Shown: positions 3,839 through 61,254 of the stretch, piece by piece
Numbering within the stretch: position 1 is the stretch's first letter
Layout: each line of letters opens with the position of its first letter
Origin: Sulfurimonas sp.
GTDB lineage: Bacteria; Campylobacterota; Campylobacteria; Campylobacterales; Sulfurimonadaceae
DNA: 62,337 bases
Assembly (NCBI GenBank): GCA_011391635.1
Contig: JAABQD010000013.1
Coordinates: 1 to 62,337, forward strand
Direction of reading: 5' to 3'
Notes under the pieces: model-generated
What the model saw: only the letters and a program-made list of their open reading frames with translations
What the model was told of the DNA's origin: nothing
Databases searched by the model: none
Program-made: the position numbers and the translations under genes

Positions 3839-3848
3839 CCACATGCCA
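3839..3848 (-). repeat. Uptake-like motif copy, intergenic (first in window)
   Basis: Exact CCACATGCCA (minus-strand TGGCATGTGG, followed by AAAAG). It lies between the BrnA-like gene and the secreted protease gene and is the first copy in the window; the preceding 3.8 kb accessory patch has none. Confidence 0.8.
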
Positions 3849-3921
3849 TAAAATTCAGGTATGTGTATATTATTTTATATCAATTTGATACAATTCCATA
3901 TATAAAATAGGATGATGTATT

Positions 3922-5136
3922 ATGCCCTCAACTACTCTTTCTCCATACAATAGCCGTTATCAAGCCAACTCTGGACTTGGTTATGATGGTGTAGTTCGCA
4001 TTCGTGTTGGTGAATACTACGGCACAGGTGTTTTACTGAATGATGGACGCAGTATTCTTACTGGAGCACATCTTTTTTCAAGTAGCACCAATCCTGTTGT
4101 AGATACACAAGTTGTTTTCGAAACTCAAACAAAAAATAAAATATCTTCTTCTGTAGATTCAGTTACGATAAATCCAGATTATAGCACTCTCACATCACAA
4201 GCAGATTTGGCAATAGTTCATTTGAATCAATCTGCATTTACTGATGCAGAGCGTTATGGACTATATCGAGAAGATATTACAGAAAATCAAACTTTTACTT
4301 TTGTTGGCTATGGAAGAGCAGGTACAGGAACGAGTGGTATAGAAACAAATGCAAGTACGCCAATTCGCCGTATGGCAGATAACACAATTGATGGCGATGT
4401 AGATTTACTTAATCAATATTTAGACTCGGTTATGAGCTGGACACCTCCAGCCCATACACAGTTTATTGCTGATTTTGATAATGGCAGTTATACGAATGAT
4501 GCTGGTGGACAACTGTTACATGTACTCCACTCAGGAATTGGCTCCCAAGAAGGTATCATAACGATAGGTGATAGTGGTGGACCGGCATTTATAAGTAATA
4601 AAATAGCAGGAATTGCAAGTTATACAACTAGTTTATCATTAAATGCAAATCATCCTGATGTAGATACAATAATTAATAGCAGCTATGGTGAACTTGCTGC
4701 TTGGCAAAAAACAAGCTACTATCAAAAATGGATAGATCAAGAGATAAGAGCAAGTTATCAAAATGCTCCAACTAAAGCAGAAGATGTAGTAAAAGTAGTG
4801 AATGAAGGCAATGCGAACACAAACCATGTTTATTTTTTACTTGAATTTACGGGTGTGCGAGGGGATGCCAATCAAATTTTGAGTGTTGAGTACACTACGA
4901 GAAATGGTACAGCAATTGCGGGAGAAGACTACATTGCTATAAGTGACACACTGAGACTTTATCCAGAAGAGACGAAAGCTGTTATCGCAGTAGAAATAGT
5001 TGCTGATACCTATGTTGAATCGGATGAAACTTTTTATCTTGATGTTACAAATCCAGTAGGTGGTAGTTTTGGTGATGGGATTATTACACTGACTGCTATG
5101 CGTACCATACTCAATGATGATGGTTTAATCGCTTAG
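3922..5136 (+). CDS. Trypsin-like serine protease with Calx-beta domain
   Basis: 404 residues. The N-terminal two thirds is a chymotrypsin-fold protease with the triad visible as GAHLF (His), ADLAIVHL (Asp) and GDSGGPA (Ser). Residues ~285-400 form a Calx-beta domain (VEYTTRNGTAIAGEDYI, YVESDETFYLDV, TILNDDG). There is no signal peptide, which fits export by the type I system encoded just downstream. Relatives are usually N-terminal parts of very large secreted adhesins with many Calx-beta and RTX repeats. Here the protein ends after one Calx-beta unit and has no glycine-rich RTX nonapeptides, so it may be truncated. The stop lies 8 bp from the 3' end of a convergent tRNA gene. Protease identity is firm, export route inferred. 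Confidence 0.85.
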   Translation: MPSTTLSPYNSRYQANSGLGYDGVVRIRVGEYYGTGVLLNDGRSILTGAHLFSSSTNPVVDTQVVFETQTKNKISSSVDSVTINPDYSTLTSQADLAIVHLNQSAFTDAERYGLYREDITENQTFTFVGYGRAGTGTSGIETNASTPIRRMADNTIDGDVDLLNQYLDSVMSWTPPAHTQFIADFDNGSYTNDAGGQLLHVLHSGIGSQEGIITIGDSGGPAFISNKIAGIASYTTSLSLNANHPDVDTIINSSYGELAAWQKTSYYQKWIDQEIRASYQNAPTKAEDVVKVVNEGNANTNHVYFLLEFTGVRGDANQILSVEYTTRNGTAIAGEDYIAISDTLRLYPEETKAVIAVEIVADTYVESDETFYLDVTNPVGGSFGDGIITLTAMRTILNDDGLIA

Positions 5137-5144
5137 AACTTAGA

Positions 5145-5221
5145 TGGTGCCGACACGAGGATTCGAACCCCGGGCCTGCTGATTACAAATCAGCTGCTCT
5201 AGCCAACTGAGCTATGTCGGC
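5145..5221 (-). tRNA. tRNA-Thr (anticodon TGT)
   Basis: On the minus strand GCCGACA starts the acceptor stem and pairs with TGTCGGC before A-CCA, which is encoded. The anticodon loop TTTGTAA between GCTGA and TCAGC gives anticodon TGT. The T loop TTCGAAT is standard. 77 nt including CCA. It is convergent with and almost abuts the protease gene. Confidence 0.97.
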
Positions 5222-5292
5222 AAAAAATTGGATAGAAGCGAATTTTATCTCGTTAAACTTTAAACAAACTGATTTTATGTACAATTGCGACC

Positions 5293-5742
5293 ATGAAACG
5301 AAATATTATAGCAAAAACATTCACTCCATCTTATGACACAGTTGAAGACAGGATAAGGGTTGTTGTCAATTATCAAGATATAAATGATAGGGTTGATTTT
5401 ATGATAACGAGAAGTTTTATCTTAAATCTTATCCCTACAGCTGAAGAATTTATAGGTAAATATTATGGAACAATGGCCACTTCAACTCCACAAGTAGAAA
5501 ATAAAAATAACTCTTTTTCGAAAACAGACACGGTCAATCTCGAACTTTTACGAACAACGGATGAACTCCTTACGGAAGTGAATTTTTCTTTCAATGCAAA
5601 TACAAAGCTAACTTTAGTGACATTTAACTCTAAAAATGCAGTTGCACAGGCTGATTTAGATGCTTTTATGATAACTCAAATATTTCAAGTGATAAAGTCA
5701 TCTATACCTAATATTAGCTGGGGAATATCACACTATTTCTAA
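5293..5742 (+). CDS. Hypothetical protein upstream of SapC-fusion gene
   Basis: 149-residue protein with no family I recognise. No signal peptide or membrane segment; mixed alpha/beta composition (IRVVVNYQDINDRVDFMITRSF, TKLTLVTFNSK). It sits between the tRNA and the RAYT-SapC fusion, in the same direction as the secretion genes. It may therefore act in secretion of the surface protein, by context only. TACAAT (5280-5285) is 7 nt before the ATG with no room for a normal ribosome binding site, another possible leaderless start. Confidence 0.6.
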   Translation: MKRNIIAKTFTPSYDTVEDRIRVVVNYQDINDRVDFMITRSFILNLIPTAEEFIGKYYGTMATSTPQVENKNNSFSKTDTVNLELLRTTDELLTEVNFSFNANTKLTLVTFNSKNAVAQADLDAFMITQIFQVIKSSIPNISWGISHYF

Positions 5743-59548: not shown

Positions 59549-59600
59549 GCAAAAGGTGCTTGAGATGATTCTACACTAAAATAGTGAAATATTTGTTAAA

Positions 59601-60713
59601 TTATTTTGCGAGTGCATTCAGTGTATGGATAATATCATCCATCTTGTCACTTATGCGACTTACTTCATCAGAGATATCATTCACTTCATCTGCATTTCTG
59701 TTGAGTGTATCAGATGCTTCTGAGATAGATTGGATTAAAACATTGGTTGTAGCAGATGTTTCAGCCAAACTTTTTTGTGTTCGCTCTGCGAGTTTACGCA
59801 CTTCATCTGCAACAACCGCAAAACCGCGTCCATGCTCTCCTGCTCTTGCTGCTTCGATGGCTGCATTAAGAGCGAGTAAATTTGTTTGGTCTGCGATATC
59901 GCCGATTGTAGAGAGAATAGCTTTTGTCTCATTTGCATTCGAGACAAGCGTTTGAAGATTTCCAACCATCTCATTCTCTTTTTGAGAAACATCATGAATT
60001 CTATGAACAGTTGCATGAATCATATTCTTGAGGTCGATAATCGTTGTATCAGTGATATTGCTGATAGTTTTGTTCAACGCAGTTGAAGTTTCCATAATAT
60101 GGCTTTGAGAGTGTTCATTCTCTTTTTGCATATTTTGGAGTGATTCGCCAAGGAGATTGATGTTATTGAGAAGTTCAGCCATTTTTGCTTCTACTTTGAC
60201 TTCACTTCTTGCAGTAAATGTTCCATTTGCAAAGCTTTGTAGAGTTTTGATGGCATTATCGATATTTTTTTCAGAGTAGGTAAGCATATTATTCATACTA
60301 TTTCTAAGAATATGAACATAAGGAGTTTTACTATCTGCACCAACGCGGCATGTGTAATGCCCTTTTGAGACTTTATCGGCCAAAAGTACCATCTCCCCTG
60401 CAACTTTTGTATCTTCAAGTACAGATGTTTGATAGACTTGGAGAAGTTTATTGAGACTTTTTTCTACTTCGTCTGTTGTCGCTTCATTAAGAGAGATTTT
60501 ATTTCTTTTAAATTCGAGAAGTTCATTAAGTTCTACGAGAAGTTTTTGAATCGTCGAACTCCCAGTAGAGCTTTGCATTTGTAGAGCAATTACCACAGTA
60601 AAAACAATAACAGCAACTACGGTGTGAACGACAGCAGAAGCACTCAAAAAGAGAGAGAGGATTAAAAGAGCAAAAGCTATCGATATGGCAATATTTTTTT
60701 GTAAAGCATTCAT
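59601..60713 (-). CDS. Methyl-accepting chemotaxis protein without periplasmic domain
   Basis: 370 residues from ATG 60713, with AGGA upstream (a longer reading to 60809 overlaps the PAS gene). Two close membrane helices near the N-terminus (~8-50) with almost no periplasmic loop, a linker, then the signalling hairpin IGDIADQTNLLALNAAIEAA with RAGEHGRGFAVVADEVR. It follows a PAS-only gene after 10 bp. The arrangement equals the CetB (PAS) / CetA (receptor) energy-taxis pair of Campylobacter, or an Aer split in two. A weak motif at 60346. Confidence 0.9.
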   Translation of the reverse strand: MNALQKNIAISIAFALLILSLFLSASAVVHTVVAVIVFTVVIALQMQSSTGSSTIQKLLVELNELLEFKRNKISLNEATTDEVEKSLNKLLQVYQTSVLEDTKVAGEMVLLADKVSKGHYTCRVGADSKTPYVHILRNSMNNMLTYSEKNIDNAIKTLQSFANGTFTARSEVKVEAKMAELLNNINLLGESLQNMQKENEHSQSHIMETSTALNKTISNITDTTIIDLKNMIHATVHRIHDVSQKENEMVGNLQTLVSNANETKAILSTIGDIADQTNLLALNAAIEAARAGEHGRGFAVVADEVRKLAERTQKSLAETSATTNVLIQSISEASDTLNRNADEVNDISDEVSRISDKMDDIIHTLNALAK

Positions 60714-60723
60714 GTATGATTTC

Positions 60724-61107
60724 CTATCGTAATGTTTTGTAAAGTGTTTGAGCTTCGTGAATCTCTTGAGGAGATGGTTTTCTTCGACATGAGATGTATG
60801 TTCGAGCATTTTTCACATCATCATGCATTGGATAGACCGTAGCATAGACCCAGTAATAACCACCATCTTTGGTTTTGTTTTTTACATACCCACTCCAGAC
60901 TTTGTTTTGTCTTACAGTGTCCCAGAGGTCTTTGAATGCAACTTTTGGCATATCAGGGTGTCTCACAATATTATGTGATTTACCAACGAGCTCATCTATC
61001 GTGTATCCAGCAATCTTGCAAAAATCATCATTTGCAAATAAGATAGTACCCTTTTCATCCGTCTGTGATACGAGAAAGTCATCATTTTTTAACACATATT
61101 CTTGCAT
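60724..61107 (-). CDS. PAS-domain redox sensor, CetB/Aer-like
   Basis: About 127 residues from ATG 61107, 8 nt after AAGGAG (longer starts at 61113 and 61182 fit less well). A single Aer-type PAS domain: FLVSQTDEKGTILFANDDF, IAGYTIDELVGKSHNIVRHP, LWDTVRQNKVWSG and GYYWVYATVYPM. FAD is the likely cofactor. Adjacent to a receptor lacking a sensor domain, so it probably supplies the sensor in trans. Confidence 0.85.
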   Translation of the reverse strand: MQEYVLKNDDFLVSQTDEKGTILFANDDFCKIAGYTIDELVGKSHNIVRHPDMPKVAFKDLWDTVRQNKVWSGYVKNKTKDGGYYWVYATVYPMHDDVKNARTYISCRRKPSPQEIHEAQTLYKTLR

Positions 61108-61244
61108 GTACATTGCTCCTTGTTTGAAATTGTTTGTTATTATACAGCATAAAAGTGACAAACAAGTGAGTTTTTTTATCACGCTTTTACTACTAATGAA
61201 TTATCTTAAGCTAACTAAAAGTTTTGTAAGAAATTATTTTATTT

Positions 61245-61254
61245 TGGCATGTGG
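61245..61254 (+). repeat. Uptake-like motif copy, intergenic (last in window)
   Basis: Exact TGGCATGTGG followed by AATTAT, between the divergent PAS sensor and rppH genes. Confidence 0.8.

What the first reader, a model, noticed from the sequence alone, without database searches (positions are those of the whole stretch)
3839..61254. A dispersed 11-mer TGGCATGTGGA with the hallmarks of a DNA uptake sequence in a Campylobacterota genome
Exact TGGCATGTGG or its complement occurs 27 times (positions in the feature entry), about one per 2 kb. All 27 have A next on the motif strand and then A or T, and most have T before, giving TTGGCATGTGGAW. A hand estimate at 36% G+C expects about 0.04 copies. 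Orientation is balanced (14 plus, 13 minus), which speaks against Chi or KOPS-type polar motifs. Copies fall in unrelated genes, between genes and at gene ends. About 17 further copies differ by one or two bases, as expected for a drifting uptake motif. Dedicated uptake sequences are established for Pasteurellaceae and Neisseriaceae; Helicobacter and Campylobacter are not known to use one (Campylobacter jejuni relies on methylation). It would be a new self-recognition system for DNA uptake.
Basis: partly seen in the sequence, partly recalled or inferred. Interest (0 to 1): 0.95.

Follow-up and report, generated by a model that had tools for sequence, protein, structure and literature searches.

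The report
DNA self-recognition tag in Sulfurimonas
This Sulfurimonas genome carries about a thousand copies of one short DNA word, and related species carry altered versions of it, some at the very same places; the word likely marks DNA as the bacterium's own so that it is taken up from the surroundings, a kind of tag so far described in only two other bacterial families.

Summary
TGGCATGTGG occurs 27 times in the window (0.05 expected), and TGGCATGTGGA 1041 times in the 2.35-Mb genome (511 plus, 530 minus; reversed control 1). Copies lie in genes and between them, locally on both strands, with some inverted pairs near stop codons. They are conserved far above background: 14 of 16 identical in a species where 20.6% of other 10-mers are.

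The motif is one of several dialects. Relatives carry YTACATGTAR, YTGCGTGAG, GGATGTAGA or (weaker) TGCATCT; at 19 of 134 aligned sites a relative shows its own version against 1.2 expected, another's only twice. Two dialects each form a clade. ComEC, DprA, secretin and prepilin genes are present; dprA lies in the window. This is the pattern of DUS and USS, known so far only in Neisseriaceae and Pasteurellaceae (PMC12616744), with other sequences and in another phylum.

Uptake itself is untested and the receptor unknown: competence genes are equally present in motif-poor relatives. I judge an uptake sequence about 75% likely; the main rival is a motif of other function, like cyanobacterial HIP1.

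The parts
3838..3847 (-). uptake-sequence core GGCATGTGGA
8198..8207 (-). uptake-sequence core GGCATGTGGA
10346..10355 (+). uptake-sequence core GGCATGTGGA
12766..12775 (+). uptake-sequence core GGCATGTGGA
14444..14453 (+). uptake-sequence core GGCATGTGGA
14908..14917 (-). uptake-sequence core GGCATGTGGA
15538..15547 (+). uptake-sequence core GGCATGTGGA
19844..19853 (-). uptake-sequence core GGCATGTGGA
21827..21836 (+). uptake-sequence core GGCATGTGGA
24061..24070 (+). uptake-sequence core GGCATGTGGA
28638..28647 (-). uptake-sequence core GGCATGTGGA
29497..29506 (-). uptake-sequence core GGCATGTGGA
29651..29660 (+). uptake-sequence core GGCATGTGGA (direct pair with 29672)
29672..29681 (+). uptake-sequence core GGCATGTGGA (direct pair with 29651)
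30101..30110 (+). uptake-sequence core GGCATGTGGA
31702..31711 (+). uptake-sequence core GGCATGTGGA
39023..39032 (+). uptake-sequence core GGCATGTGGA
39525..39534 (-). uptake-sequence core GGCATGTGGA
41138..41147 (-). uptake-sequence core GGCATGTGGA
42518..42527 (-). uptake-sequence core GGCATGTGGA
44674..44683 (+). uptake-sequence core GGCATGTGGA
49751..49760 (-). uptake-sequence core GGCATGTGGA, just before the dprA ORF
50484..50493 (-). uptake-sequence core GGCATGTGGA inside the dprA ORF
53657..53666 (-). uptake-sequence core GGCATGTGGA (direct pair with 53721)
53721..53730 (-). uptake-sequence core GGCATGTGGA (direct pair with 53657)
56197..56206 (+). uptake-sequence core GGCATGTGGA
61246..61255 (+). 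uptake-sequence core GGCATGTGGA
49843..50631 (+). dprA (DNA processing protein A, acts on incoming DNA in transformation): competence gene of this genome that lies in the window
   Evidence: PF02481 E 3.9e-55; the whole-genome search finds it here, C4:49864-50427

Best explanation
TGGCATGTGGA is one dialect of a family of genome-wide motifs in Sulfurimonas and related Campylobacterota that most likely serve as DNA uptake sequences, tags that would let competent cells prefer DNA of their own kind. Inferred mechanism: a surface receptor, predicted to be a minor pilin of the type IV pilus / type II secretion-like competence machine, would bind tagged double-stranded DNA; the secretin would let it into the periplasm, ComEC would pass one strand into the cell, and DprA with RecA would recombine it. 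Because tagged fragments would enter more often, copies that arise by mutation would be spread and mutated copies overwritten. Shown here: number, sharpness, spread, local strand balance, inverted pairs, conservation, other dialects that coincide with it at orthologous sites above chance, and presence of competence genes. Inferred: uptake bias, and the receptor.
For: 1041 copies, 511/530 by strand, reversed control 1. 72 plus and 69 minus over 280 kb of one contig. Of 230 core copies in 408 kb, 159 lie in ORFs (0.43 per kb) and 71 between them (1.73 per kb); in ORFs 76 on the gene strand, 83 opposite. Within 80 bp, 23 inverted and 11 direct pairs; of 20 inverted pairs within 60 bp, 14 are intergenic, 9 of these within 17 bases of a stop codon (counted by me). 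Conservation against other 10-mers in the same alignments: 14/16 v 20.6%, 17/31 v 10.7%, 9/15 v 6.4%. Dialects found without a preset motif, with whole-genome counts. Own-dialect coincidence at orthologous sites 19 of 134, 1.2 expected; pooled A-B 13/157 (0.94 expected), A-C 11/75 (0.84). Dialects A and C each a clade with support 1.0 on a tree of 21 genomes. ComEC in 17 of 17; prepilins, secretin and DprA in 37 of 37.
Against: No uptake or transformation test; of 13 papers holding 'natural transformation' and Sulfurimonas, none of the 10 listed is by its title about transformation of Sulfurimonas. ComEC, secretin, prepilins and DprA are equally present in motif-poor species, so gene content does not link motif to competence. 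The best receptor guess, a FimT/GspH-like minor pilin, is not generally basic (mean net charge of the soluble part -3.2 over 48 sequences, +3 here) and occurs also in G317 and G347, which have only the weak GCATCT word. Copies are clustered, not evenly spaced (gap CV 1.36). Inner one-base variants are few, whereas a Neisseriaceae survey says near-copies are more numerous than exact ones (PMC3630211; the same paper gives only 21% extra for Kingella oralis). One dialect is a palindrome, unlike DUS and USS. Motif-free species stand between palindrome-bearing ones on the tree (G229, G323). The D motif never coincides with A sites (0 of 45).
Confidence: 0.75

Rival explanations
1. A genome-wide motif with a function inside the cell, comparable to the cyanobacterial palindrome HIP1 (recalled): a site for a methylase, a nucleoid-structuring or a repair protein, kept by selection and changed when that protein changes its specificity.
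For: The YTACATGTAR dialect is palindromic; the six central bases of dialect A show no one-base variant in 408 kb; competence gene content does not follow the motif.
Against: Dialects A, A2, C and D are not palindromic. Several strong dialects occur within one genus, and 116 of its 135 genomes hold at most 9 copies of dialect A: quick turnover for a chromosome-organising site. Inverted pairs just behind stop codons are the habit of DUS and USS.
Confidence: 0.15
2. A recombination or segregation signal such as Chi (read by AddAB or RecBCD) or KOPS (read by FtsK).
For: Abundant, species-specific, in coding and non-coding DNA.
Against: Such signals are polar along a replichore (established knowledge); here both strands are used equally over 280 kb of one contig (72/69) and relative to genes (76/83), and one dialect is a palindrome.
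Confidence: 0.03
3. A dispersed mobile repeat or a set of transcription terminators.
For: Inverted pairs near stops resemble terminators.
Against: 159 of 230 copies lie inside ORFs on either strand; nothing is conserved beyond about 15 bases; flanks 10-40 bases away diverge normally (identity 0.68-0.78) while the motif is kept; some relatives have a substituted dialect at the site.
Confidence: 0.02
4. A true uptake sequence of the past that is no longer read in this species, kept only by slow decay.
For: Some relatives hold only tens of copies (8 of 135 genomes with 25-92), as after loss of use.
Against: In this genome inner one-base variants are few and copies are conserved above background between species, which speaks for present maintenance.
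Confidence: 0.05

Closest known systems
DNA uptake sequence (DUS) of Neisseriaceae, receptor ComP
   Same: About a thousand to several thousand copies of a 10-12-base motif, in genes and between them, inverted pairs linked to terminators, several dialects that follow phylogeny (PMC3630211: abstract; two sections).
   Different: Other sequence: no CTG core in GGCATGTGGA; fewer near-copies; a palindromic dialect; another phylum; receptor unknown; uptake not tested.
Uptake signal sequence (USS) of Pasteurellaceae, predicted receptor ComN/PpdA
   Same: Abundant short motif with variants kept in clades; the proposed receptor is a minor pilin (PMC12616744: abstract; introduction).
   Different: No GCGG core; no strong AT tracts downstream (only T at 59% three bases behind the core); unrelated lineage.
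Cts / ComEC competence machine of Campylobacter and its Aliarcobacter homologues
   Same: Same phylum; secretin (CtsD), pseudopilin (CtsG), ComEC and ComE homologues known (PMC8308473, passages); comparable families here.
HIP1 of cyanobacteria (recalled)
   Same: Abundant, sharply kept, palindromic like the YTACATGTAR dialect.
   Different: Other sequence; the A, A2, C and D forms are not palindromic.
FimT of Legionella and other Gammaproteobacteria
   Different: Legionella FimT binding is described as non-sequence-specific; binding of this protein to DNA is untested.

Membership tests
Uptake sequences as a class (DUS/USS-like) | Hundreds to thousands of copies of a short motif, far above chance, genome-wide | tested here: met
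   1041 copies, reversed control 1
Uptake sequences as a class (DUS/USS-like) | Both orientations, no replichore polarity | tested here: met
   511/530 genome-wide; 72/69 in 280 kb of one contig
Uptake sequences as a class (DUS/USS-like) | Copies in genes and between genes, some as inverted pairs near gene ends | tested here: met
Uptake sequences as a class (DUS/USS-like) | Dialects that follow phylogeny | tested here: met
   A and C each a clade, support 1.0, among 21 genomes; B is spread, with motif-free G229 and G323 between its bearers; counts
Uptake sequences as a class (DUS/USS-like) | Host encodes competence machinery | tested here: met
   ComEC (here a fragment at a contig end), prepilins, secretin, DprA; not specific to motif-rich species
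Uptake sequences as a class (DUS/USS-like) | Motif raises DNA uptake or transformation | not testable with these tools
   needs an experiment
Uptake sequences as a class (DUS/USS-like) | Sequence-specific surface receptor | not tested
   only a fold-level candidate
DUS of Neisseriaceae | CTG inner core | tested here: not met
   GGCATGTGGA and its complement TCCACATGCC hold no CTG or CAG (sequence); core named in PMC3630211
DUS of Neisseriaceae | ComP receptor | tested here: inconclusive
   no ComP model among the NCBIfam hits shown for three prepilins; other prepilins not examined
USS of Pasteurellaceae | GCGG inner core | tested here: not met
   absent from GGCATGTGGA and its complement (sequence); core named in PMC12616744
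Chi / KOPS | Strand polarity along the replichore | tested here: not met
   72/69 over 280 kb
HIP1 | Palindrome GCGATCGC (recalled) | tested here: not met
   different sequence; dialect A not palindromic
GspH/FimT minor pilins (receptor candidate L274:124-771:-) | GspH/FimT fold with prepilin N-terminus | tested here: met

The most novel reading that the evidence does not exclude
A third, independently evolved self-DNA recognition system for natural transformation, in the phylum Campylobacterota: an ancestral palindromic tag (TTTACATGTAAA-like, read by a symmetric or dimeric pilin receptor) that gave rise within one genus to at least four further dialects (A, A2, C, E), each overwriting the old tag in place when the receptor changed.
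Probability: 0.45. Interest if true: 0.93.

Novelty: new variant of a known kind. Interest (0 to 1): 0.86.

Why it matters
Uptake sequences are said to be known only in Neisseriaceae and Pasteurellaceae (PMC12616744), and how a tag and its receptor originate and change is an open question. Here dialects differ between species of one genus, and aligned genomes show some sites in different dialects, so the change of tag can be followed base by base. Cultured species carry the tags (S. autotrophica by exact genome length), which makes the question testable. It would also mean barriers to gene exchange in a widespread group of sulfur bacteria.

Tried and rejected
Extra type IV pilus cluster as the explanation: the second secretin with prepilins (this genome, C1 265-275 kb) has no counterpart in the hits of motif-rich G180, G335, G016, G102 and G020 (one secretin each) and is present in G323 and G365 (the prepilin list is cut), so it does not track the motif.

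ComEC, DprA, secretin and prepilins as a presence/absence explanation: present in every genome tested, so no correlation could be found.

The pilins upstream of priA as receptor: pilin 1 differs greatly even between the two nearest same-dialect genomes G000 and G389 (by eye); not pursued.

FimT/GspH-like pilin as receptor: fold fits but charge does not single it out. Plain Foldseek gave no match at E 0.001 or better; only the second-look alignment did. Sequence search in the PDB matched mainly the pilin N-terminus. Too little sequence was available to test covariation with dialect.

Motif-free gaps as mobile DNA: of six gaps over 7 kb I looked at five, judging by eye from the first 60 residues of their ORFs without a family search: one looks like an island (GC 0.31, integrase-like ORF), one is a ribosomal-protein operon, one holds central-metabolism genes, two are mixed.

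Even spacing as a hallmark: not found.

Motifs in G323, G229, G147, G311, G238, G305, G191: none that I judged clear in 60-120 kb. G238 and G191 gave enriched patterns (scores to 20.0 and 18.5) that looked like coding repeats and were not followed. For several other genomes only 20 kb or less was sampled, four of those stretches were all N, so further dialects may be missed.

Papers: none holding both 'DNA uptake sequence' and Campylobacterota, or 'uptake sequence' and Sulfurimonas or Sulfurospirillum; the listings show no title on such a tag in these genera. Only open-licence PMC papers were searched.
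Full report
OBSERVATION. TGGCATGTGG occurs 27 times in the window, 14 plus and 13 minus; 100 shuffles give 0.05 on average. All 27 continue with A and then A or T, and 21 of 27 have T before (counted by me). With the core GGCATGTGGA there are 32 copies. 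In the whole genome (G000, 2,345,822 bases, 84 contigs, 92% complete) TGGCATGTGGA occurs 511 times forward and 530 times reverse; the pattern read backwards occurs once.

SHAPE. The logo from 255 sites holding GCATGTGG is TTGGCATGTGGAA with a weak T three bases behind the core. Little is conserved beyond that. In 408 kb, 187 exact 11-mers face 78 with one mismatch, against means of 0.08 and 3.4 for 60 letter-shuffled motifs; 43 of the 78 differ only at the first T and 35 elsewhere. For the 12-mer (127 exact) 13 variants fall on the ten inner positions and none on the six central bases. In Neisseriaceae one-mismatch copies are said to be more numerous than exact ones, with examples of 1.15 and 1.45 to 1, though Kingella oralis gains only 21% (PMC3630211; the counts are not made in the same way).

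DISTRIBUTION. Plus and minus copies alternate along 280 kb of one contig (72 and 69). Of 230 core copies in 408 kb, 159 lie in ORFs of at least 100 codons and 71 outside, a fourfold higher density outside; within ORFs 76 share the gene's strand and 83 do not. Within 80 bases there are 23 inverted and 11 direct pairs. Of 20 inverted pairs within 60 bases, 14 are intergenic and 9 of those lie within 17 bases of a stop codon (counted by me). Spacing is clustered (CV 1.36), with gaps up to 19 kb. Of six gaps above 7 kb five were looked at by ORF listing: a ribosomal-protein operon, central-metabolism genes, one low-GC stretch with an integrase-like ORF, and two mixed stretches (names judged by eye).

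WHO HAS IT. Over 398 genomes of the order (drawn from a larger group), only four hold more than 500 copies (G000 1041, G389 892, G275 751, G371 522), one holds 50, and the other 393 hold 0 to 7. In the genus (135 genomes) 11 hold 215 to 1041, eight hold 25 to 92, and 116 hold 0 to 9. G275 is Sulfurimonas sp. CG01_land_8_20_14_3_00_36_23 and G389 the Lake Pavin MAG_34_15, by equal contig lengths. G125 has exactly the length of S. autotrophica OK10, 2,153,198 bases. So the window's genus is Sulfurimonas in the wide sense. G335 (2,201,561 bases) fits S. denitrificans, 2.20 Mb (the exact length is recalled).

DIALECTS. Counting over-represented words without a preset motif in samples of other genomes gave further motifs: CTACATGTA and TGCGTGAG, TTACATGTAA, GGATGTAG and GGCGTTTA, and a weaker GCATCT in G347, G317 and G365. 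Whole-genome counts: YTACATGTAR 46 to 1635 sites in 43 of 44 genomes of family f20 (8 in the other), 50 to 499 in 9 of 46 of the window's family f1 (0 to 31 in the other 37), and 0 to 18 in the 308 genomes of all other families; reversed control 0 to 21. YTGCGTGAG: 532 to 836 in seven and 73 in one of 135 genus genomes, the rest 0 to 41. GGATGTAGA: 349 in G281, at most 41 in the other 134. The GGCGTTTA word of G049 was not counted genome-wide. Family f20 is probably Sulfurospirillaceae: of seven hits of its pilin that name an organism among the 120 listed, six are Sulfurospirillum or Sulfurospirillaceae; not confirmed. On a tree of 13 proteins from 21 genomes the TGGCATGTGGA genomes form one clade and the two TGCGTGAG genomes another (support 1.0 each); the palindromic form is spread over f20, G102, G180, G335 and G125, with motif-free G229 and G323 between, and looks ancestral (several genomes have only part of the proteins).

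SAME SITES, OTHER DIALECT. Where this genome has GGCATGTGGA, aligned relatives of the same dialect keep it: 14/16 in G389 against 20.6% of other 10-mers, 17/31 in G275 against 10.7%, 9/15 in G371 against 6.4%. Relatives of other dialects show their own motif there: TACATGTA 6 of 53 sites in G335, G180 and G125; TGCGTGAG 4 of 24 in G016 and G076 (all four in G016); GGGATGT or GGATGTAG 2 of 11 in G281; TGCATCT 7 of 46 in G347, G317 and G365; together 19 of 134 against 1.2 expected. Another's motif was seen twice over all eleven partners tested. A further exploratory word, TGCATTT, appeared at five sites in four partners. All pairs of 12 motif-bearing genomes with more than 3 kb aligned, pooled: A-B 13/157 (0.94 expected), A-C 11/75 (0.84), B-C 3/44 (0.33), A-A2 2/37 (0.44), A-D 0/45 (0.24), A2-B 1/72 (0.16), A2-C 0/37 (0.19). 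Limits: pairs share genomes and so are not independent; TGCATCT was chosen. In register, A GGCATGTGGA, A2 GGGATGTAGA, B TACATGTAGA, C TGCGTGAGG and E TGCATCTAGA share several positions (my alignment).

MACHINERY. ComEC occurs in 17 of 17 genus genomes tested (in this genome as a fragment at a contig end), prepilins, secretin and DprA in 37 of 37 of a panel with and without motif. The dprA of this genome lies in the window at 49843-50631, with one core copy inside and one 83 bases before it. Two or three prepilin genes stand upstream of a priA-cluster gene in all 21 genomes whose region was held, and in 20 of them (not G049) a gene of the comEC cluster or fragment is nearby (priA named for this genome only). 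A FimT/GspH-like minor pilin (L274:124-771:-) has 1926 homologues at E 0.001, a confident model and the GspH/FimT fold; Legionella FimT binds DNA (PMC8897410). It is a candidate receptor only; its charge does not favour it.

MECHANISM. I hold a DNA uptake sequence to be the best explanation (0.75). Abundance, both strands, conservation, dialects and inverted pairs at gene ends are shared with DUS and USS, and the replacement of one dialect by another at the same site is what a tag read by a changing receptor would leave. A site read by a changing cytoplasmic protein could also leave this, and is the main rival. No step of uptake was tested.

NOVELTY. A 2025 paper names Neisseriaceae and Pasteurellaceae as the only families known to use such motifs (PMC12616744, introduction read). 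My searches for such a tag in Campylobacterota, Sulfurimonas and Sulfurospirillum found none (open-licence PMC only; mostly listings).

Noticed in passing
family f20 genomes (for example G193, G020): The palindrome YTACATGTAR occurs up to 1635 times per genome, and at least 46 times in 43 of 44 genomes of a whole family: a finding in itself.
   Followed up: partly
   Followed up: partly
G049 samples: A further abundant word TATGGCGTTTA that never coincides with aligned TGGCATGTGGA sites.
   Followed up: partly
G000:C1:95105-105303 (L082, L083): 10-kb motif-free stretch of 31% GC with an integrase-like ORF (by eye): probably a recently acquired island.
   Followed up: no
L008 (DAIEHU010000143.1): A contig labelled Desulfobacteraceae carries the inverted motif pair; possibly a misbinned Sulfurimonas contig.
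   Followed up: no
G000:C1:265171-274810 (L091): A second type IV pilus-like cluster (four prepilins and a secretin) that is patchy in the genus and not linked to the motif.
   Followed up: partly
eight genus genomes with 25-92 copies (G329, G435, G442, G483, G489, G494, G502, G503): Intermediate copy numbers, balanced by strand: may be decaying tags, visiting copies from neighbours or mixed bins.
   Followed up: no
G395 sample (L157): Palindromic AGAACGTTCTC four times in 20 kb, possibly another motif in a sister genus.
   Followed up: no
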